Assembly: GCF_016427535.1 (NCBI RefSeq)
Contig: NZ_JAELXV010000003.1
Span: forward strand, 434,001-498,000
Direction of reading: 5' to 3'
DNA: 64,000 nucleotides
Origin: Hymenobacter sp. BT559
GTDB lineage: Bacteria > Bacteroidota > Bacteroidia > Cytophagales > Hymenobacteraceae
In this document: positions 54,164-63,643 of the stretch, piece after piece
Position numbering within the stretch: the stretch's first letter is position 1
Layout of the letters: each line of letters begins with the position of its first letter
Position numbers and translations under genes: made by a program
Notes under the pieces: generated by a model
What the model was told of the DNA's origin: nothing
Databases searched by the model: none
What the model saw: the letters and a program-made list of their open reading frames with translations, nothing else

Positions 54164-55513
54164 ATGCTCTTCTACACCGTTATGAAGCCCGTAGTGCGCC
54201 TTGGGCTGCGCGTGTTTTTTCGGCGCCTTGAGGTGCGCCACCGCCAGCGCCTGCGCCTGCCGGGCCCACTCATGCTGTGTAGCAACCACCCTAATACGCT
54301 CATGGACCCGCTCGTAACGGCTGTGCAGCGGCACCAGCCCATCGCGTTTCTGGCCAAGAGCACGTTCTTCAAAAACCCGGTACTCGGCGCCATTATGCGC
54401 TCAGGCAACTGCATTCCCATCTACCGTCGCCAAGATGCCGAAGGCGAGGGTGCCAGCACGGCCCGGCAGCTAGCCGCCAGCAACGAAGCCAGCTTTGGCC
54501 GCTGCTACGACTACCTAGAGCGCGGCGGCACGGTCATGATTTTTCCGGAAGGCACCAGCGTGAGCGAGCGCCGTCTGCGCCCGCTCAAGACCGGGGCCGC
54601 CCGCATTGCCCTAGGGGCCGAGGCGCGGCACGACTTTAAGCTGGGCCTCAAGCTAGTGTGCGTGGGCACCAATTACTTTGACCCCACGCGCTTCCGCTCC
54701 GATGTGCTGCTCAATGTGGCCCCGCCCATCGTGGTGGCCGACTACGCGGCCCGCTACCACGAGGACCCCGCCGCCGCGGCCGACGAGCTCACCGAGGAAA
54801 TCAGGCAGCGCCTCACGCGGCGACTCGTCATCAGCCGCGCTGCCGAGGACGACGAGCTGGCCCAGCAGGTAGAGCGCACCTTCGGTGACCACCTCAATCC
54901 CGACGACGACCCCACCACGCTCTACGACAACTTTGAGCTGAGCCGCACGCTGCTCGACGCCGTGGCTTGGTTTGAGCAGCATAACCCCAATCGGCTGGCA
55001 GCGTTGCGCACCGCCCTAGGGCAGTACCTAGCCAGTTTACAAGCCTATAGACTCGAAGACGACGACCTCGACCAAACCCAACGCCCCGGCGCGCGCCTGG
55101 CCGACTTCCTCAACCTGGTGCTGGGCTTGCCGGTATGGCTCTATGGGCTCATTACTAACTATGTGCCTTATAAGATTCCGGCGCAAGTAGCCCGTCGGGC
55201 TACTAAGGACACTGAGTTTATCGCTGCTATCCTACTAGGCGTGGGCATCATCACGTTTCCGGTGGCTTACGCCATTGAAGCGGCTGCCGTGCAGCACTGG
55301 CTCACGCACGACTGGCGCCTGACGAGCTTGTTTGTGCTCAGCCTGCCGCTGGCAGGTTTCTACGCCCTAGGGTACTGGCAAACGCTGAGCGCCCGCCTGC
55401 GCCGCCTGCGGGTGCGCTGGCTACCGGCTGCTACCCGGGCTGGCCTGCGGGCGCAGCGTGCCGAGGTCCTGCGTCTGCTGGATGACGCACGAGCCGAATA
55501 CTTAAAGCAATGA
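54164..55513 (+). CDS. Lysophospholipid acyltransferase-family protein
   Basis: 449 residues. The PlsC-type domain occupies the first 230: SNHPNTLMDPLVT carries the catalytic His and Asp (H-x5-D spacing rather than the usual H-x4-D), FPEGTSVSERRLRPLKTGA is the lysophospholipid-binding block. The C-terminal half has a helical region and two membrane segments (around FIAAILLGVGIITFPVAYAIE and SLFVLSLPLAGFYALGYW). Longer than plain PlsC. It probably acylates a lysolipid or glycerol-phosphate backbone; the exact substrate is open. Confidence 0.85.
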   Translation: MLFYTVMKPVVRLGLRVFFRRLEVRHRQRLRLPGPLMLCSNHPNTLMDPLVTAVQRHQPIAFLAKSTFFKNPVLGAIMRSGNCIPIYRRQDAEGEGASTARQLAASNEASFGRCYDYLERGGTVMIFPEGTSVSERRLRPLKTGAARIALGAEARHDFKLGLKLVCVGTNYFDPTRFRSDVLLNVAPPIVVADYAARYHEDPAAAADELTEEIRQRLTRRLVISRAAEDDELAQQVERTFGDHLNPDDDPTTLYDNFELSRTLLDAVAWFEQHNPNRLAALRTALGQYLASLQAYRLEDDDLDQTQRPGARLADFLNLVLGLPVWLYGLITNYVPYKIPAQVARRATKDTEFIAAILLGVGIITFPVAYAIEAAAVQHWLTHDWRLTSLFVLSLPLAGFYALGYWQTLSARLRRLRVRWLPAATRAGLRAQRAEVLRLLDDARAEYLKQ

Positions 55514-55582
55514 GCAGTTAACAATGAACAATGAGCAGACGGAATGACGCCTCTGCCCATTGTTCATTGTTAACTGCTCATT
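55509..55582. repeat. Inverted repeat (AACAATGAACAATGAGCAG words) between convergent genes
   Basis: Arms 55509-55538 and 55553-55582 pair over 29 of 30 bases with a 14-base loop. The left arm contains the stop codon of the acyltransferase gene and the right arm ends 10 bases before the stop of the minus-strand gene, so it probably terminates both. Confidence 0.8.
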
Positions 55583-55591
55583 ATTAATTGA

Positions 55592-57247
55592 CTATTCGTC
55601 CAAGTATTGGTGCACAAACTTGATAGCCATGCTGCCCTCGCCCACGGCTGAGGCCACGCGCGCCATGGCGCCAGCGCGGCCATCGCCGGCGGCAAACATG
55701 CCGGGCACGCAGGTTTCGAGCAGGTAAGGCTCGCGCTCCTTTTTCCAGGAGGCGCCGTAGCGCGGGTCAGCTACCAGGTCGCGGCCGGTGAGCAGGTAGC
55801 CCTTGGCATCGCAAATGGCGAGGTGGCATATCCACTCGGTGCTGGGCCGGGTGCCGATGAAGATGAACAGGGCGCGCGCAGGGTGCTTTTCAGGCTCCTG
55901 GCCATCGCGCTGAATCACGACGGCCTCCAGCGAGGTGTCGCCGCACGCCTCGCGCACCTGGGTGCGGGGTAGCAGTTCGATGTTCGGCGTCTGGCTAATC
56001 TGCTCGATGAGGTAGGCCGACATGCTGGCCGCCAGGCTCTCGCCCCGGATAACAATAAATACCTTCGACGCATACGTGGAGAGGTACATAGCCGCCTGCC
56101 CCGCCGAGTTGCCCCCGCCGATGATGTACACCGGCTGGTTGCTGCAGCTGCGGGCTTCGGTGCGCGCCGCGCCGTAGTACACGCCCGCCCCGCTTAGGCG
56201 GTCGAGGCCCGGCGCTTGCAGTGTGCGGTAGCTGACGCCGGTAGTAAGGACTACGGCGCGGGTTTTTATCTCAGTTTTGTCGCCCAGAGTCAGTACTTTG
56301 TAACCATCTTTTACGCACAGGTCTACTACCTCTTGCGGTGCCATAAACTCGGCACCTAGGCGGGTGGCCTGACTCCAGGCGCGGTGGGCCAGCTCGGCGC
56401 CGCTCAGCCCGGTGGGGAAGCCTAGGTAGTTTTCGATGCGCGACGACGAGCCCGCCTGCCCGCCGGGCGTTTGCCGCTCAATGATGAGCGTTTTCAGACC
56501 TTCCGATGCGCCGTACACGGCGGCTGCCAGCCCGGCTGGGCCCGCCCCAATAACGACCACATCGTACAGCTCTTGCTTGGCCTCTACCAGCAGCCCTAGG
56601 TGCCGGGCTAGGTCAAGTTTATCGGGCCGCGACACCACCTTACCATCGGGGCAAAATACCACGGGCAGGTCGTCGGGCCCGAAGCCGCTGGCTTGCAGCA
56701 GCGTAGTAGCTTCGGCATCCTTCTCAAAATCAAGCCATTGGTAACCCACCATGTAGCCGCTTAAGAAGTCCTTGAGGTCGTGCGACAGTGGCGACCACTG
56801 AAACCCAACCAGCCGAATGCCCGCAAATGCCGGCCGGTAAGTGGCTTGCCAGCTAGCCAGCAGGTCGTGCAGGGTAGGGTAGAGAAGTTGCTCGGGCGGG
56901 TCCCAGGGCTTGAGCAGGTAGTAGTCGAGCTGCGCCGAATTGATGGCCTGAATAGCGGCTGTAGTATCGGCGTAGGCTGTCAGCAGCACGCGCTTGGTGC
57001 TCGGAAACAGGCCGCGGGCGTGGGTTAGTACCTCCACCCCCTCTACTTCGGGCATACGCTGGTCGGCCAGCACCAGGGCCAGGGGCTCGGCGCGGGCGCG
57101 CAGCTCGTCGAGCGTTTTTAAGGCCTCTGGGCCCGAGCCTACGCTCAAGATGCGGTAGTCTTTGTGAAACTCCTTGCGCAGGTCGCGGGTAATAGCGCCC
57201 AGCACCTGCGGGTCATCGTCAACAGTCAGGATAATGGGCTTTTTCAT
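55592..57247 (-). CDS. Response regulator fused to thioredoxin-reductase-like flavoprotein
   Basis: 551 residues in three parts. Residues 1-125 are a receiver domain with phospho-acceptor Asp62 (LVLADQRMPEVEG) and Lys113. Residues about 140-225 are a thioredoxin-like module whose CxxC position reads SPLS. Residues about 230-551 are an FAD/NAD(P) reductase of the TrxR fold (VVVIGAGPAGLAAAVYGASE, TPGGQAGSSSRIENYLGFP, VYIIGGGNSAGQAAMYLS), but the TrxR active site CATC is GAAR here. The normal disulfide chemistry is therefore missing. It probably partners the adjacent kinase. The output reaction is unknown. Confidence 0.9.
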   Translation of the reverse strand: MKKPIILTVDDDPQVLGAITRDLRKEFHKDYRILSVGSGPEALKTLDELRARAEPLALVLADQRMPEVEGVEVLTHARGLFPSTKRVLLTAYADTTAAIQAINSAQLDYYLLKPWDPPEQLLYPTLHDLLASWQATYRPAFAGIRLVGFQWSPLSHDLKDFLSGYMVGYQWLDFEKDAEATTLLQASGFGPDDLPVVFCPDGKVVSRPDKLDLARHLGLLVEAKQELYDVVVIGAGPAGLAAAVYGASEGLKTLIIERQTPGGQAGSSSRIENYLGFPTGLSGAELAHRAWSQATRLGAEFMAPQEVVDLCVKDGYKVLTLGDKTEIKTRAVVLTTGVSYRTLQAPGLDRLSGAGVYYGAARTEARSCSNQPVYIIGGGNSAGQAAMYLSTYASKVFIVIRGESLAASMSAYLIEQISQTPNIELLPRTQVREACGDTSLEAVVIQRDGQEPEKHPARALFIFIGTRPSTEWICHLAICDAKGYLLTGRDLVADPRYGASWKKEREPYLLETCVPGMFAAGDGRAGAMARVASAVGEGSMAIKFVHQYLDE

Positions 57248-57340
57248 AGAAGGAAGCTAGCACGCAGCATGAGTAAGCAGCGTGCAAAATAATAGTAGAT
57301 GCGTACCACATTCAATACGCAGCGATTGGGTAACACTTCC

Positions 57341-58738
57341 TTAACCAATCGGCAGCCAGGTGGTGAACTCGGTGTGCCCAGGCTGCGATGCGGCCTCTAG
57401 GCGCCCGCCATGCTCCTGCACGATGCGCCGCGCTATGTCAAGGCCCTGGCCCGAGCCCTCGCCGGCCGGCTTAGTGGTATAGAAAGGCTCGAACATGTGC
57501 GCTAGCACCTCGGGTGTGATGCCCGAGCCGTTGTCTTGTATACTGACGCACACGAAGTCGCTTTGCTTGGTTACGCGCACCGTGAGCTCGCCGCCTTTGT
57601 CTGGTAGCGCATCCAAAGCATTGTCAATCAAATTAGTCCACACTTGATTAAGGCTGCCGGCCTGGCCCATTATCAGCGGTAGGCTGGGGGCATAGTCGCG
57701 GGTGAGGCGCACGTTTTTCTGGCGTAGCGTGTGGGCGAAGATGTTGAGCGTGCTATCAAGCCCGGTCGTGACGGCCAGCTTCTCGCGGCCCCCGGCACGG
57801 TCCATGTGCGAGTAGGTTTTGACATCGTTTACCAGCGTGCTGATGCGCTGGCTAGCCTCCCTGATGTCGTGAGCTAGGCGTAGCGTGGCCAAGTGGCCAG
57901 CCAGCCAGGTCAGTGCCGGAGTGCGGGCCGCGTCCGGTAGCTGGGCCACTACCGGCGCCAGGGCATCTAGGTCCAGGCCCGCGTCGAGGAGGTTGGCAGC
58001 TAGGGTGTAGCCATCGGGGCAGCCCTGTGTTTCAAGCCAGTCGGCCAGTTCTTCTTCGCGGTCCGAGGCTTGCAGCGCCGAGAGTACCGGAGGCGCCTCG
58101 GTGGGTAGCACCGCCAGCGCCGTGAGGGCCGCCATGGCGTCGGCCGGTGGGCAAGCGGCGAGCATATCTAGCAGCAGCTGTGGCTTCAGAAGCAGGGAGT
58201 CGGCCAGTGCGGCGGCGGCGCGGCTAATGGCGGCGGCTGGGTTATTGAGCTCGTGTGAGAGGCCAGCCGACAGCTTCCCTAGAGCCCGCAGCTTGTCGTC
58301 CCGCTCCTGAGTGCGTGCTTCTTCGCGGGCGCGGTCGCTCATGATGCCTACTAAGCGCTGTACTAGCTCGGGGCTCACATGCTCTAGCGCTGCAAACTGG
58401 CTGCGCGGCAGTTGATACAAGATAGTTTCGCCAACTGCTACACCTTGGCCACGAAATATTTGCAGTCGTGAGTAGGGGAGCACTCCGGTCACGCGGCCTG
58501 CTTCGACGCTAAAGACGGGTGTGCGGCCGGTGGGGGCCGTGGCGTAGTACTGCATGGCGCCCTTCACCACGGCCAGCATACGGTCGGCGGGGGCACCGGC
58601 TTCTACGACGATTTCGCTGGGGGCGTACTGCCGCACTTCTCCTGCTTCGAGTAGCCAGGTCAGTACTTCGGGCGGCAGGTTTTCGAAGGCCGTAATGCCA
58701 CCTAGGAGAGCAGGGTCGGGAGGAAGGAGCTGAGACAT
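57341..58738 (-). CDS. Soluble histidine kinase with cyclic-nucleotide-binding-like N-terminus
   Basis: 465 residues, no membrane helix. Residues about 15-130 form a cNMP-binding-like beta-barrel (LPPEVLTWLLEAGEVRQYAP, VEAGAPADRMLAVVKGAMQY). Phosphoacceptor His162 lies in KLSAGLSHELNNPAAAIS; the ATPase part has NLIDNALDALPD, IQDNGSGITPEV and GEGSGQGLDIARRI. It ends 93 bases upstream of the receiver/reductase gene, so the pair is one operon and presumably one phosphorelay. The N-terminal ligand (cAMP, a flavin or redox cue) is unknown. Confidence 0.9.
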   Translation of the reverse strand: MSQLLPPDPALLGGITAFENLPPEVLTWLLEAGEVRQYAPSEIVVEAGAPADRMLAVVKGAMQYYATAPTGRTPVFSVEAGRVTGVLPYSRLQIFRGQGVAVGETILYQLPRSQFAALEHVSPELVQRLVGIMSDRAREEARTQERDDKLRALGKLSAGLSHELNNPAAAISRAAAALADSLLLKPQLLLDMLAACPPADAMAALTALAVLPTEAPPVLSALQASDREEELADWLETQGCPDGYTLAANLLDAGLDLDALAPVVAQLPDAARTPALTWLAGHLATLRLAHDIREASQRISTLVNDVKTYSHMDRAGGREKLAVTTGLDSTLNIFAHTLRQKNVRLTRDYAPSLPLIMGQAGSLNQVWTNLIDNALDALPDKGGELTVRVTKQSDFVCVSIQDNGSGITPEVLAHMFEPFYTTKPAGEGSGQGLDIARRIVQEHGGRLEAASQPGHTEFTTWLPIG

Positions 58739-58841: not shown

Positions 58842-60155
58842 GTGACTGACGTTTCTGCTCCTGACTCCCCGGCGCCTGCCGCCCCGCTGCTCACCCGCGA
58901 GCAGGTGCTGCGTGCCCTGCGCCTCGTGGAGCGCGAAGGCCGCCAACTGCCACCCAGCACCGTGTACGAGTTGCTGTATCGCAGCCGCCGCTACCCACCT
59001 CGCGCTGTGGCCGAGCTGGCCTATCGCCTCGCGCACCGCGACCCCAAAATTCGCTGGCCCCACCCCGCCGGCCAGCCTACCAATACGGTGCTCGAAGCGC
59101 TCGACTTTACCATCGTGGCCAAGCGTCCCATCCTAGCCGCGGGCTCGGCCCAAGACCAGGGTCAGGCCGCCGAGCAGCAGGCCGAAGACCTGTACACCGG
59201 CCCGCCCCTGGCCGACAAGGTGGCCGCCGACTCCGCTGTGGCCGAGCCTGCCCCCACCTACGCGAGCCCGCCGCCAGCGGCCTACGACGAAAAAACGGCC
59301 CTAGGTGAGCTGTTTATCTCGAAGGAAGAGCTAACCGCAGCCCTGGCCGGCCTGCGCCGCCGCCGCGCCCTGTTGCTACAGGGCCCGCCCGGCACCGGCA
59401 AAACGTTTTTGGCGCGCCGGCTGGCTTGGCTGCTCCTGGGTGCCCAAGACGATAGCCGCATCGAGTTGGTGCAGTTTCACCCTAGCTACGGCTACGAAGA
59501 CTTCGTGCTCGGCTTTCGGCCTGGCCCCGACGGACAGTTTAGCTTGGTGCCCGGCGTGTTGCCGCTGCTGTGTCAGCGCGCCGCGCTCGACCCCGAGCGG
59601 CCTTATTTCCTATTGATTGATGAGCTAAACCGCGGCAACGTGGCCCGCATTTTTGGTGAGCTCCTAGTGCTGCTAGAGCCCTCGCAGCGCGGCCCGGCTC
59701 ACGCCCTGCGCCTGCCCTACGCCCCGCCCGAGGAGCCACTGTTTTACGTGCCTGAGAACCTATACGTCATCGGCACGCTCAACCTCGCCGACCGCTCGCT
59801 GGCGCCCCTCGACTACGCCCTGCGGCGCCGCTTTGCGTTCGTGACCATGCAGCCGCAGTTTAGTGGCGCCCTGCAAGAGCTGCTGCACGCTGCCCGCGTA
59901 CCCGGACCCCTAGCCGCCCACGTAGCCGAGCGCATGGCCGAGCTCAACCAGGCCATTGCCGATGACCCCGACCTAGGGCCCGATTTTGCGGTAGGCCACA
60001 GCTACTTCTGCGCCCCGCCCGCCGCCCCTGCCGAGGCAGCAGTTTGGCTGCGCCTAATCTTCGAGCAAGAAATAGGCCCGCTGCTGGCCGACTACTGGCG
60101 TGAGCAGCCCGCCACGGCCGCCGCCCATCAGCGCCGGTTATTGCAAGGGTTGTAA
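58842..60155 (+). CDS. mcrB: McrB-like AAA+ restriction GTPase/ATPase subunit
   Basis: 437 residues from a GTG. An N-terminal domain of about 95 residues (TVYELLYRSRRYPPRAVAE and TNTVLEALDFTIV) resembles the YPPKAV-type head domain seen on some McrA/McrB proteins, presumably for modified-DNA recognition, then a Pro/Ala-rich linker. The AAA+ module has P-loop GPPGTGKT (181-188), Walker B LLIDELNR (257-264) and the McrB signature GTLNLADRSLAPLDYALRRR. With McrC downstream it should form a type IV restriction enzyme that cuts methylated foreign DNA. Confidence 0.9.
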   Translation: MTDVSAPDSPAPAAPLLTREQVLRALRLVEREGRQLPPSTVYELLYRSRRYPPRAVAELAYRLAHRDPKIRWPHPAGQPTNTVLEALDFTIVAKRPILAAGSAQDQGQAAEQQAEDLYTGPPLADKVAADSAVAEPAPTYASPPPAAYDEKTALGELFISKEELTAALAGLRRRRALLLQGPPGTGKTFLARRLAWLLLGAQDDSRIELVQFHPSYGYEDFVLGFRPGPDGQFSLVPGVLPLLCQRAALDPERPYFLLIDELNRGNVARIFGELLVLLEPSQRGPAHALRLPYAPPEEPLFYVPENLYVIGTLNLADRSLAPLDYALRRRFAFVTMQPQFSGALQELLHAARVPGPLAAHVAERMAELNQAIADDPDLGPDFAVGHSYFCAPPAAPAEAAVWLRLIFEQEIGPLLADYWREQPATAAAHQRRLLQGL

Positions 60156-60269
60156 AATACAGGCCGCAGTATCTCGCGCAACTACTGGATAGCCCCCGCC
60201 CCCAACTAGTCAGCCCGCCGCAGGCGGGCGTATCCGCGCAATCAGTTAAATCCGCTAAATCTGCGATAA

Positions 60270-61301
60270 ATGATACCGCTCGCCACGCTCTACTACTTGT
60301 TGTGCTACGCCTGGCAGCGCCTGCCCGTGCCGGCCGTGCTGCAAGCCACCGAGGCCACGCCCTTCCACCGCCCGCTGGAGCTGCTGACCCAAATGCTGCT
60401 GCACGCCACCCGCGAGCTGCTGCGCACCGGCCTGCCCCGCGGCTACCAAACCCAGGAAGCCGAGTTGCGCGAGCTGCGGGGCCGCATTGAGTTGGCACCC
60501 AGCCTAGGCCGTGGGCTGTTGCCCCAGGGCCGCGCCGTGTGCACCTACGACGAGTTGAGCCCCAACCAGCCGCTGTACCGGCTGGTAGCTGGTACCCTAG
60601 CGGCCCTGGCCAACCACCGGGCCGTGCCCGTGGCCCTGCGCCGCGACCTAGGCCATGTGCGCCGCCGCCTGCCCGCCGAGGTAGTGCCGCTAGTGCCCAC
60701 GGCAGGCATCTTCGCGGAGCTGCGCCGCCAGCGCCCGGCCAGCCAAGAGGCGTTTTTACTGCACCTCTGCGAGCTCATCTACCAAACTGCTCTGCCCGAG
60801 CCAGCCGAGGAGGGCAGAGGACGCTTTGTAGATTTTCGGCGCGACGAGCGCCTGATGGCGCGCTTGTTTGAGCAAGCCGTGCGCAATTTTTACCGCCGCG
60901 AGCAGCGCCAGTACCGCGTATTTGCCGAAACCATTACCTGGCAGGCTGCCGCCCCGCAGCCAAAAGACCTAGACTTACTGCCCACTATGCTCACCGACAC
61001 GACCTTGGATAGCCCGGCCCGTAAGATTATTCTCGATACCAAGTACTACGCGGCGGCCCTGCGCCCACGCTACGACCAGCAGCGCCTCATTTCGCCGCAC
61101 CTCTACCAGCTCTACGCCTACCTCCAAAACGTGCGCCCCGCTGCGGGCCAGCAGCTCGAAGGCATCTTGCTCTATCCCGCTGCTACGGCCGCCGTCGATG
61201 TGCGCTATACCCTAGGCGGCCACCCGGTGCGCATCGTCACCCTAGATTTACACCAGCCCTGGCCCGGCATCGCTGCCGACTTGCTGGCGCTGGTTGCCTA
61301 A
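60270..61301 (+). CDS. mcrC: McrC-like restriction nuclease subunit
   Basis: 343 residues. The McrC family N-terminal domain includes GRIELAPSLGRGLLPQGRAV and CTYDELSPNQPLYRL. The PD-(D/E)xK nuclease is at the C-terminus: FEQAVRNFYRRE (Glu201), PTMLTD (Asp243) and ILDTKYY (Asp256, Lys258). It starts 115 bases after McrB, longer than usual for an mcrBC pair, and the gap holds a small GC stem (GCCCGCCGCAGGCGGGC) plus a repeat-like AATCCGCTAAATCTGCGATA. Confidence 0.9.
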   Translation: MIPLATLYYLLCYAWQRLPVPAVLQATEATPFHRPLELLTQMLLHATRELLRTGLPRGYQTQEAELRELRGRIELAPSLGRGLLPQGRAVCTYDELSPNQPLYRLVAGTLAALANHRAVPVALRRDLGHVRRRLPAEVVPLVPTAGIFAELRRQRPASQEAFLLHLCELIYQTALPEPAEEGRGRFVDFRRDERLMARLFEQAVRNFYRREQRQYRVFAETITWQAAAPQPKDLDLLPTMLTDTTLDSPARKIILDTKYYAAALRPRYDQQRLISPHLYQLYAYLQNVRPAAGQQLEGILLYPAATAAVDVRYTLGGHPVRIVTLDLHQPWPGIAADLLALVA

Positions 61302-61777: not shown

Positions 61778-62374
61778 ATGAACATGGATAGCACAACGGC
61801 GCTGGCGGCCGATGCCCAACTTATCCGAGCCATCCAAAGTGGCGACGAGCGGGCGCTGAGCCAGCTCTATCGACTGCACTGGCCCATGGTGTCGCACTTC
61901 GTGCTGCAAAACAGCGGAACCGAAGACGACGCCCGCGATGTGTACCAGGAAGGCGTAATGGTGTTTTATGAAAAAGTACGCGAAGGCTCCCTGGAGCTGA
62001 GCTGCCAGATTAAAACTTACCTCTACGCAGTGTGCCGCCGCCTGTGGCTCAAGCGCCTCACCACCAAGAGCCGGCTGCACGGTGTGCGCCTGCTCGATGA
62101 TGATGACTACGGACCCTACCTCAACACGGGGGCCGAAGATGACCTCCACGAAGCCGAAGAGCGCGACCGGCGCTTTGCAACCATGAGCGAGGCGCTCACC
62201 CACCTAGGGGAGCCCTGCCGCTCGCTGCTCGAAGGCTTTTACCTGCTCGATAAGTCGATGCAGGACCTCACGGCGGAGCACGGCTATACCAACGCCGACA
62301 CCGCCAAAACCCAGAAGTACAAGTGCCTCACGCGCTTGAAGAAGTTGTTTTTTGCTAGTTATAAAGAAGTATAG
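61778..62374 (+). CDS. ECF-type RNA polymerase sigma factor
   Basis: 198 residues. Region 2 is clear: LIRAIQSGDERALSQLYRLH and DDARDVYQEGVMVFYEKV then QIKTYLYAVCRRLWLKRL. Region 4 (SLLEGFYLLDKSMQDLTAEH, KTQKYKCLTRLKKLF) is less canonical than usual. The following gene, 99 bases downstream, is a probable membrane anti-sigma partner, so the two should form a sigma/anti-sigma pair controlling a stress or envelope response. The regulon is unknown. The start could instead be the ATG at 61784. Confidence 0.88.
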   Translation: MNMDSTTALAADAQLIRAIQSGDERALSQLYRLHWPMVSHFVLQNSGTEDDARDVYQEGVMVFYEKVREGSLELSCQIKTYLYAVCRRLWLKRLTTKSRLHGVRLLDDDDYGPYLNTGAEDDLHEAEERDRRFATMSEALTHLGEPCRSLLEGFYLLDKSMQDLTAEHGYTNADTAKTQKYKCLTRLKKLFFASYKEV

Positions 62375-62385
62375 TTTAGGGCATA

Positions 62386-62465
62386 GTGCCTAGCTGCTAG
62401 TGCTTAGTAAATGGTCGACCAAGCCAGTACTAAACGCCAAGCACTAAGCACTAGCAGCTAGGCAC
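62386..62465. repeat. Inverted repeat (GTGCTTAGTGC words) between sigma and protease genes
   Basis: Arms 62386-62408 and 62443-62465 pair perfectly over 23 bases (GTGCCTAGCTGCTAGTGCTT) around a 34-base loop. It sits inside what would otherwise be an operon, so it may tune the level of the downstream gene. Confidence 0.75.
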
Positions 62466-62473
62466 CAATCAAA

Positions 62474-63643
62474 ATGCAAACCGAAGCCGACTACTACGCG
62501 CTCTTTGAAGCTTACCAGCGCGGTGAGCTTGCCGCCGGGGCGCGGGCCGACCTAGAAGCGCGCCTCAGCACCGACCCGCGGCTGCACCAGCGCTACGCCG
62601 AGTTTGAGGAGCTGACCGGCACGCTACGTGCCTACGGCGAACGCCGCCGCACCCGCCAGATGCTAGGTGGCTTGCACGAAGCCATGCTGGCTGCCGACGA
62701 GGCGCCAGCTGCAGAAGAAAAACAGGCAGATGGCTTGTCGTATTCGGTAAACCCGCGCCTGAGCATTTCGCGCACCGAGCGCCGGCTGCGCGAGTTTTGG
62801 AATGGCCACCGCGCCACTATGGGCGTGGCCGCTTCGGTCGCCGTGTTGGCGGTGTTTTGCACGTTGCTAGGCCTCGATTTGTGGCGTGCTACCACTGCCG
62901 CGCCGGCCAGTAGCCTGCGGGAGTTGCGAGGTGAGGTAGCCCGCATTACACGCCGTACGGATGCGCTCACCCGGAAGGTGAATAACGTGGCTGGTACAAC
63001 CGATGCTGTAGCACCAGTACGCGTGAATAAATATAGCGGTACCGGTTTTGCGCTCACCGCCGATGGCTACCTCGTAACCAGCGCGCACGTTATTAAAGGA
63101 GCCGATTCGCTACTGGTAGAAAGCCGTGACCACCGACGCTACCACGCCGAAACCGTGTATACTGACCGCAAGCACGACCTCGCTATCCTACGCATCAAGG
63201 ACCGTAATTTCAAGCCCTTTAATCGACTGCCTTACACGTTTAAGGCTGGTCAAGCTGACCTAGGCGAACGCGTGTACACCTTGGGCTACCCCCGCGAAGA
63301 TGCTGTGTATGGCGAAGGTGCGCTAAGCGCCCGCTCGGGTTATGACGGCGACACGGCGTTTTACCAAGTAAGTATTCCCTTGAACCCCGGTAACTCGGGC
63401 GGTCCGCTGCTTGATGGGCAAGGCAACCTGATTGGGGTGGTAAGCAGCCGGCAAGACGATGTGCTGGGCGCGGCCTTTGCCACTAAGTCGTCGTACCTGG
63501 TGCATCTGGTCGATTCGCTCAAAAACAAGCAGCCCTTGCAGCCCTACCACTTGCCGCGCACCAACCAGCTGGCCGGCGCCGCCCGCCCGCAGCAACTCAA
63601 GCGCCTGCAAGACTTTGTGTTTGTAGTAAAGGTTTATGAATAG
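62474..63643 (+). CDS. Membrane anti-sigma-like protein with DegP-type periplasmic protease domain
   Basis: 389 residues. Residues 1-50 resemble the helical N-terminus of anti-sigma factors (ADLEARLSTDPRLHQRYAEF) but without the zinc His-Cys set. One membrane helix spans about 113-136. The periplasmic part is an S1C trypsin-like protease: YSGTGFALTADGYLVTSAHVIKG (His205), TDRKHDLAIL (Asp235) and IPLNPGNSGGPLLDG (Ser308). There is no PDZ domain. It would join cytosolic sigma binding to a periplasmic protease, an uncommon layout. A plain membrane-anchored DegP-like protease is the alternative. Confidence 0.85.
   Translation: MQTEADYYALFEAYQRGELAAGARADLEARLSTDPRLHQRYAEFEELTGTLRAYGERRRTRQMLGGLHEAMLAADEAPAAEEKQADGLSYSVNPRLSISRTERRLREFWNGHRATMGVAASVAVLAVFCTLLGLDLWRATTAAPASSLRELRGEVARITRRTDALTRKVNNVAGTTDAVAPVRVNKYSGTGFALTADGYLVTSAHVIKGADSLLVESRDHRRYHAETVYTDRKHDLAILRIKDRNFKPFNRLPYTFKAGQADLGERVYTLGYPREDAVYGEGALSARSGYDGDTAFYQVSIPLNPGNSGGPLLDGQGNLIGVVSSRQDDVLGAAFATKSSYLVHLVDSLKNKQPLQPYHLPRTNQLAGAARPQQLKRLQDFVFVVKVYE

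What the first reader, a model, noticed from the sequence alone, without database searches (positions are those of the whole stretch)
55592..58738. cNMP-domain kinase paired with a receiver/thioredoxin-reductase fusion lacking redox cysteines
The receiver (Asp62) is joined to a thioredoxin-like module with SPLS at the CxxC place and to a TrxR-like flavoprotein with GAAR where TrxR has CATC. The kinase, 93 bases away, has an intact His162 and a cyclic-nucleotide-like N-terminus. Together they suggest a phosphorylation-controlled flavoprotein with a non-disulfide function.
Basis: partly seen in the sequence, partly recalled or inferred. Interest (0 to 1): 0.6.

Follow-up and report, generated by a model that had tools for sequence, protein, structure and literature searches.

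The report
Kinase-paired cysteine-free thioredoxin-reductase-like flavoprotein
A bacterial flavoprotein built like thioredoxin reductase, but without the cysteines that reaction needs, carries a receiver switch and travels with its own histidine kinase, so it probably does a different, signal-controlled redox job.

Summary
The window (by its relatives a Hymenobacter genome) holds a kinase gene (57341-58738, -) and, 93 bp downstream, a receiver + glutaredoxin-like + thioredoxin-reductase (TrxR)-like fusion (55592-57247, -). In 60 aligned homologues from five phyla none has CxxC at either redox site, and no displaced Cys pair is conserved. Instead Tyr358, Glu364 and Arg401 are 60/60 and Ser152 59/60. 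Receiver Asp62 and Lys113 are 58/58.

Receiver-type flavoprotein and kinase occur in the same genomes: 41 = 41 of 296 Bacteroidota and 74 = 74 of 150 Hymenobacteraceae, at cut-offs I set. Sister proteins carry a cNMP-fold domain in cis. A ubiquitin-protease-type zinc finger (zf-UBP) lies within 5 kb of 22 of 47 flavoprotein genes; the window locus lacks it, the genome's paralogous locus has it.

The kinase's cNMP-fold domain lacks the canonical cyclic-nucleotide cassette. Receiver-TrxR fusions are already in print. Phosphotransfer, flavin binding and the electron acceptor are not shown. Verdict: real, new variant of a known kind.

The parts
57341..58738 (-). Sensor histidine kinase, 465 aa: cNMP-fold sensor domain, HisKA helix with His162, long stretch between the two dimerisation helices, HATPase_c
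58385..58633 (-). cNMP-fold sensor domain (kinase residues 36-118) with GVLPYSR at residues 85-91 in place of the usual phosphate-binding cassette
   Evidence: the canonical cassette is recalled knowledge
57935..58153 (-). About 73 residues (196-268) between the two long dimerisation helices of the model; mostly helical; the stretch 180-292 is weakly conserved
55592..57247 (-). Receiver + glutaredoxin-like + TrxR-like flavoprotein, 551 aa
56873..57247 (-). Receiver domain (about residues 1-125); phospho-acceptor Asp62, Lys113
56582..56830 (-). Glutaredoxin-like domain (residues 140-222) with SPLS where glutaredoxins have CPxC; Pro195 60/60
55595..56569 (-). TrxR-like FAD/NAD(P)H domain pair (about residues 227-551); FAD and NAD(P)H glycine motifs intact; YYGAARTEA in place of the redox CxxC
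55715..55786 (-). Insert (about residues 488-511) with W501, R505, P507 each in 59 of 60; absent from the genome's own TrxR (L003)
57248..57340 (.). 93-bp gap between kinase and flavoprotein, same strand; consistent with one transcript
   Evidence: co-transcription is inference

Best explanation
A two-component system whose output is a redox protein rather than a DNA-binding protein. Inferred: a signal sensed by the kinase's cNMP-fold domain (ligand unknown, probably not cAMP/cGMP in this lineage) changes autophosphorylation at His162; the phosphoryl group moves to Asp62 of the receiver; the receiver then changes how the glutaredoxin-like and TrxR-like domains pack. The TrxR-like domains bind FAD and NAD(P)H (motifs shown, binding inferred) but cannot pass electrons to a disulfide by the TrxR route; reduced FAD would pass them to a non-disulfide acceptor, with Tyr357/Tyr358/Glu364 around the place of the disulfide. 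In many relatives a zf-UBP protein is encoded alongside; in sister proteins a cNMP-fold domain fused in cis stands where the receiver would be and no such kinase is present. Shown: domains, absence of redox cysteines, conservation, pairing. Inferred: phosphotransfer, gating, non-disulfide chemistry.
For: No CxxC at the two sites in 60 of 60 homologues while Y358, E364, R401 are 60/60 and G234, G236, G377, N380, G521, D522 are 38 of 38 in the 37 non-Hymenobacter receiver-type rows plus the window: selection for a flavoprotein without the dithiol. Receiver D11, D12, D62, K113 58/58 and T90 38/38. Kinase H162, N166, N373, G404, G430, G432 42/42. Genome sets identical: 41 = 41 of 296 and 74 = 74 of 150; the 4 and 3 genomes whose flavoprotein matches do not reach the receiver have no such kinase. 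40 of 42 receiver-type genes in the phylum sample have the kinase within 4 kb; all 10 receiver-type loci fetched from cyanobacterial, Deinococcus, Burkholderiales and actinobacterial replicons have one within 3 kb.
Against: No biochemistry. The genome sets depend on E-value cut-offs I set (flavoprotein 1e-60; kinase 1e-45 and 1e-30), and genomes are related, so the Fisher values overstate independence. The structure model of the fusion is poor (pLDDT 62.2), so packing and gating are untested. In 2 of 42 phylum-sample genes the kinase is 29 kb away or on another contig. Locus L019 has only kinase fragments, G298's kinase lies in two frames, and G086's matches only from residue 144 on.
Confidence: 0.5

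Rival explanations
1. Pseudoenzyme sensor: the TrxR-like part binds FAD and NAD(P)H only to read cellular redox state, and its conformation feeds back on the receiver, the kinase or the zf-UBP partner. No turnover with an outside acceptor.
For: Both electron-relay sites (TrxR dithiol and glutaredoxin CPxC) are lost together in every homologue aligned; the core has exchangeable heads (receiver, cNMP, none).
Against: FAD and NAD(P)H motif residues are strictly kept, and invariant Y358 and E364 with near-invariant W501 suggest a specific active site. In five further sister proteins this is looser: position 364 is N in L088 and D in L091.
Confidence: 0.27
2. Hidden thiol chemistry: the near-invariant Ser152 of the glutaredoxin-like domain holds a low-molecular-weight thiol as serine-type glutathione transferases do (recalled), or a partner supplies the cysteines, and the flavoprotein reduces a mixed disulfide.
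For: Ser152 59/60 and Pro195, the expected cis-Pro (recalled), 60/60; 5 of 27 members match GST_N_2 weakly.
Against: No universal Cys that could relay electrons from the flavin: C368 is 39/58 and C513 42/58.
Confidence: 0.13
3. TrxR-like ferredoxin/flavodoxin-NADP oxidoreductase: the protein passes electrons between NAD(P)H and a ferredoxin or flavodoxin. A special case of the best explanation with a named acceptor.
For: Same fold, no CxxC in that group (PMC10294844, passages).
Against: Sequence is far closer to TrxR (157.7 bits, 7aaw) than to any chain named ferredoxin-NADP reductase among the 60 of 119 hits shown (best 53.6 bits, 5xhu). No ferredoxin or flavodoxin gene is annotated in the 9 annotated neighbourhoods of the 12 fetched (three records carry no annotation there).
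Confidence: 0.07
4. Ordinary thioredoxin reductase with a sequencing error or recent decay at the active site.
For: Some cNMP-headed relatives are named thioredoxin-disulfide reductase in public records; the receiver-headed ones with a listed gene are named FAD-dependent oxidoreductase.
Against: The cysteines are absent across five phyla, the score for TIGR01292 is 213.7 against a cut-off of 343.45, and the genome has a separate CxxC TrxR (L003, CAVC).
Confidence: 0.01

Closest known systems
[quoted passage not shown] PMC5847659, passages)
   Same: Same overall architecture, already noted as a response regulator with an enzymatic output domain.
   Different: The passages seen do not mention missing cysteines, a glutaredoxin-like module, a dedicated kinase or zf-UBP. 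I did not align the mycobacterial or archaeal proteins meant there.
Low-Mr thioredoxin reductase (TIGR01292)
   Same: Best sequence relative of residues 224-551; FAD and NAD(P)H motifs kept.
   Different: No redox CxxC, an extra W/R/P insert, below the family cut-off.
AhpF / NTRC type reductases
   Same: TrxR-like domains joined to a Trx-fold domain; 1hyu (AhpF) is the top structural hit of the poor model.
   Different: AhpF has two Trx folds and both dithiols (recalled); here both sites lack Cys. Score for AhpF TIGR03140 127.7 vs cut-off 502.9.
[quoted passage not shown]
   Same: TrxR fold lacking CxxC, with substrate preference influenced by the residue stacking on FAD (PMC10294844, passages).
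   Different: Much weaker sequence match; no receiver or glutaredoxin-like part known to me.
cNMP-headed relatives (Rhodococcus L066, Deinococcus L067, Bacteroidota L088 and L091)
   Same: Same Cys-free glutaredoxin-TrxR core; zf-UBP beside it in Rhodococcus.
   Different: cNMP domain in cis instead of receiver plus kinase; insert and position 364 differ in L088 and L091.
Bacterial zf-UBP proteins (PF02148; solved example 2IDA)
   Same: The zf-UBP of the paralogous locus (C1) and of C6 belongs here.
   Different: Not found at the window locus.

Membership tests
Thioredoxin reductase (TIGR01292) | Redox-active CxxC next to the flavin | tested here: not met
   0 of 60 homologues
Thioredoxin reductase (TIGR01292) | Score over curated cut-off | tested here: not met
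   213.7 vs 343.45 bits
Thioredoxin reductase (TIGR01292) | FAD and NAD(P)H glycine motifs | tested here: met
   G234, G236, G377, N380, G521, D522 38 of 38 rows
Two-component response regulator | Receiver domain with acceptor Asp, acidic pair, Lys | tested here: met
   PF00072 54.1 bits; D11, D12, D62, K113 58/58
Two-component response regulator | Phosphotransfer from a cognate kinase | not testable with these tools
   Only pairing evidence
Histidine kinase | H-box His and HATPase N, G1, G2 boxes | tested here: met
   H162, N373, G404, G430, G432 42/42; D402 41/42
Cyclic-nucleotide-binding domain | Fold/profile match | tested here: met
   29 of 29 members of A4 match PF00027
Cyclic-nucleotide-binding domain | Phosphate-binding cassette (Gly-Glu ... 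Arg-Ser/Thr-Ala; recalled) | tested here: not met
   G-x-[L/I]-P-x-S-R in 29 of 29 selected rows of A4 instead. In the wider set, 28 of 42 rows have it (27 of 28 Bacteroidota rows and 1 Deinococcus); the other 14 vary. L021 has Ala for the Ser
Glutaredoxin | Fold/profile match | tested here: met
   Family profile vs 2LQO E 1.3e-7; single window sequence below Pfam cut-off
Glutaredoxin | CPxC or CPxS active site (recalled) | tested here: not met
   Position 152 Ser 59/60 and Asp 1/60; position 155 Ser 53/60, Cys 2/60
TrxR-like FNR | Ferredoxin/flavodoxin reduction | not testable with these tools
   Sequence evidence weak
YpdA/Bdr bacillithiol-disulfide reductase (TIGR04018) | Score over curated cut-off | tested here: not met
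   64.2 vs 339.9 bits; its single active-site Cys in the FAD motif (recalled) is absent from GAGPAG

The most novel reading that the evidence does not exclude
A widespread redox-signalling system distinct from the thioredoxin system: a Cys-free TrxR-fold NAD(P)H flavoprotein with exchangeable input heads (receiver plus dedicated kinase, or a cNMP-fold in cis), acting with or through a bacterial ubiquitin-protease-type zinc finger that is sometimes fused to a Na+/H+ antiporter, so that redox or ligand state controls a zinc-finger adaptor or ion transport. The cNMP-headed relatives now annotated as thioredoxin-disulfide reductases would be misnamed.
Probability: 0.35. Interest if true: 0.72.

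Novelty: new variant of a known kind. Interest (0 to 1): 0.5.

Why it matters
The strict kinase pairing gives a clean, testable case of a flavoprotein under phosphorelay control. The core is Cys-free throughout the homologues aligned, yet some cNMP-headed relatives are named thioredoxin-disulfide reductase in public records, so their stated function is doubtful. The recurring zf-UBP offers a lead on what orphan bacterial zinc fingers of the ubiquitin-protease type do.

Tried and rejected
Structure of the fusion: AlphaFold2 on 17 Hymenobacter sequences gave pLDDT 62.2 and pTM 0.41 with the last 88 residues below 50. Foldseek still listed AhpF and TrxRs first, but with TM 0.19-0.25 by query length in the 50 rows shown, so I draw nothing on packing or the flavin site. 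The kinase model (pLDDT 81.7, pTM 0.37) supports local secondary structure only; Foldseek returned histidine kinases in the 50 rows shown.

Cyclic-nucleotide sensing was considered and set aside for this lineage. Some cis-headed sisters look nearer the canonical form: L066 has LGELGLL and L067 FGELPLL, so such relatives may bind a cyclic nucleotide.

Ubiquitin-tail binding by the zf-UBP: the five bacterial zf-UBPs printed have GCCD where the human USP16 and USP49 chains show GCGR and ACGR. That Arg is, from recall, a contact to the ubiquitin C-terminus, so I do not assume ubiquitin-like binding.

Displaced Cys pair: all columns with 6 or more Cys in 58 rows were listed; none is universal. The only CxxC motifs in the 60 sequences are one in a likely false N-terminal extension (L021) and one in the cNMP-headed L067 at residue 426.

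Defence context: McrBC-like genes lie next door, but PADLOC has no match to the flavoprotein or kinase at E up to 1e-5.

Literature: ten searches. Six gave no paper; 38 listed 20 of 29, 56 listed 20 of 43, 83 listed 10 of 41 (none of those listed holds the term zf-UBP), 84 gave one. Seen as passages only: PMC4506424, PMC8945050 (hits in its reference list only), PMC5847659, PMC10294844. Burroughs, Iyer and Aravind 2011 on prokaryotic treble-clef fingers (PMC5938088, cited) is not held; I recall that it may describe zf-UBP gene neighbourhoods, so I claim no priority for that link.
Full report
What is there. The window lies in a 5.8-Mb genome (G000:C8:434001-498000) that is Hymenobacter by its relatives (nearest named one H. 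setariae, 99% identical flavoprotein). On the minus strand a 465-aa kinase gene (57341-58738) is followed after 93 bp by a 551-aa gene (55592-57247). Pfam gives receiver and pyridine-nucleotide oxidoreductase domains in the second, and cNMP_binding, HisKA and HATPase_c in the first. The stretch between receiver and oxidoreductase is glutaredoxin-like: a profile of 27 relatives matches the mycobacterial glutaredoxin Rv3198.1 (2LQO) at E 1.3e-7, and 15 of 27 members match Pfam Glutaredoxin at E up to 1.

The missing cysteines. I aligned 60 homologues (58 receiver-headed, 2 cNMP-headed) plus the genome's own TrxR. They are the window, its paralogue L002, 17 of the 18 loci, 29 loci (18 of its 47 matches are the window, its paralogue, or ones for which no locus was returned) and 12 plasmid-collection loci. 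Left out before counting: L001, a copy of the window, and L025, whose gene is split in two frames. They cover Bacteroidota, Cyanobacteriota, Deinococcota, Pseudomonadota and Actinomycetota. Twenty of the 60 are Hymenobacter rows besides the window, so invariant residues were also counted without them (38 rows). Position 152 is Ser in 59 and Asp in 1; position 155 is Ser in 53 and Cys in 2; 358 is Tyr, 364 Glu and 401 Arg in all 60; W501, R505 and P507 are each in 59. The own-genome TrxR has CAVC at this place and lacks the insert. Cysteines elsewhere are partial: C368 39 of 58, C513 42 of 58, C435 31 of 58. Five further flavoproteins, two with a cNMP head (L088, L091) and three of 422-425 aa without a head (L089, L090, L092), also have no CxxC and keep Ser at 152, but Glu364 is Asn in L088 and Asp in L091, and the W/R insert is different there. 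The family test for TrxR is failed on score (213.7 vs 343.45).

The kinase. The catalytic residues are intact in 42 of 42 kinases (41 from outside Hymenobacter plus the window, rows cut to their last 480 residues). Its N-terminal domain matches the cNMP fold in 29 of 29 sequences of A4, and all 29 have Gly-x-[Leu/Ile]-Pro-x-Ser-Arg where a cyclic-nucleotide cassette would be. Those 29 were selected: 27 of the 42 rows and two more Hymenobacter rows. Of all 42, 28 have the motif (27 of 28 Bacteroidota and 1 Deinococcus); 14 do not, 13 of them from Cyanobacteriota, Actinomycetota, Burkholderiales and Deinococcus, and one Bacteroidota kinase (L115, G086) whose match lacks the sensor part. Among 15 Hymenobacter kinases one (L021) has Ala for the Ser. 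Between the two long dimerisation helices the model has about 73 extra residues, mostly helical; the stretch is weakly conserved.

The pairing. In 296 Bacteroidota genomes 45 have a flavoprotein match at E up to 1e-60; in 41 it spans the receiver and in 4 it does not. Kinase matches at E up to 1e-45 are in 41 genomes, exactly the same 41. In 150 Hymenobacteraceae genomes 77 have a flavoprotein, 74 with the receiver, and the kinase at E up to 1e-30 is in exactly those 74; in G298 the kinase lies in two frames, and five genomes have an extra weak match (1e-30 to 1e-32) to the catalytic part of another kinase. For scale, the next-best kinase in the window's own genome is at 2.4e-25. Of 42 receiver-type genes in the phylum sample, 35 have the kinase within 1 kb, 34 of these on the same strand; five more lie within 1.1-3.9 kb, one is 29 kb away and one on another contig. 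Of the 18 Hymenobacter loci, 17 have a full-length kinase ORF in the fetched stretch; L019 has fragments. All ten receiver-type plasmid-collection loci have a kinase within 3 kb. Trees of 19 Hymenobacter pairs plus an outgroup share the zf-UBP-linked group (L078, L018, L020) and the pairs L010/L012, L022/L026 and L023/L100; the flavoprotein tree is poorly resolved around the window, so this is weak support.

Third partner. In three of the four actinobacterial receiver loci (Streptomyces, Tsukamurella, Nocardia) a zf-UBP gene follows the kinase; my profile found none in the Nonomuraea stretch. In Rhodococcus a zf-UBP gene overlaps the start of a cNMP-headed flavoprotein gene. In the window's own genome the paralogous locus on C1 (flavoprotein 85% identical) has zf-UBP, kinase, a short-chain dehydrogenase and flavoprotein in a row. 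In the phylum sample 28 of 31 genomes with a zf-UBP over the cut-off have a flavoprotein, and 22 of 33 zf-UBP domains lie within 5 kb of one. In the family sample 62 of 66 zf-UBP genomes have a flavoprotein. Linkage there was worked out for ten picked genomes of genera g142 and g144 only: seven have the zf-UBP 84-170 bp from the flavoprotein match. At two flavoprotein loci (L080, L081) the zf-UBP is the C-terminus of a Na+/H+ exchanger-TrkA_N protein; at a third (L082) it ends a 677-aa protein whose other domains I did not test. Against a fixed trio: 17 of 45 flavoprotein genomes in the phylum sample and 15 of 77 in the family sample have no zf-UBP, only 22 of 47 flavoprotein genes have one within 5 kb, only 3 of the 18 Hymenobacter loci have one in the stretch, and the window locus has none.

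Reading. Two electron-relay sites are missing together and other residues are conserved in their place, while cofactor motifs and signalling residues stay intact. This is the pattern of a repurposed flavoprotein, not of decay. I put 0.5 on a phosphorylation-gated NAD(P)H flavoprotein with a non-disulfide acceptor, 0.27 on a redox-sensing pseudoenzyme, 0.13 on hidden thiol chemistry and 0.07 on an FNR-like acceptor.

Known and new. A receiver-TrxR combination is called Mycobacterium-like in a 2018 census (PMC5847659, passages). Public records name some cNMP-headed relatives thioredoxin-disulfide reductase and the receiver-headed ones, where a gene is listed, FAD-dependent oxidoreductase. In the ten searches listed I saw no paper on the missing cysteines, the kinase pairing or the zf-UBP link for this family; the library holds only open-licence papers, and one likely relevant paper (PMC5938088) could not be read.

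Noticed in passing
window 55509-55582: 31-nt inverted repeat, 97% complementary, 12-nt loop, between the convergent acyltransferase and flavoprotein genes; its 24-nt core has no other copy in the window with up to 3 mismatches. Possibly a two-way terminator.
   Followed up: partly
window 58842-61301 (+): AAA_5 ATPase gene and McrBC-domain gene, a McrBC-like restriction pair, divergent from the kinase.
   Followed up: partly
window 61778-63643 (+): Gene with a sigma-70 region 2 domain followed by one with a trypsin-like peptidase domain; possibly a regulatory pair.
   Followed up: no
L080 6578-8602, L081 5267-7312, L083 5971-8097: Na+/H+ exchanger + TrkA_N + C-terminal zf-UBP proteins; the first two sit beside a receiver-flavoprotein and kinase, the third is in a genome (G085) with no flavoprotein match at E up to 1e-60.
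   Followed up: partly
L079 5739-6011 (own genome C6): Second stand-alone zf-UBP gene with no flavoprotein or kinase of this family in the 12-kb stretch.
   Followed up: partly
L025 6001-7651: Flavoprotein gene split in two frames in a metagenome-assembled contig; could be assembly error or a pseudogene.
   Followed up: no
L056, L059, L060: In three cyanobacterial plasmids the system sits beside glycogen-debranching (glgX) and AGE-family epimerase genes.
   Followed up: no
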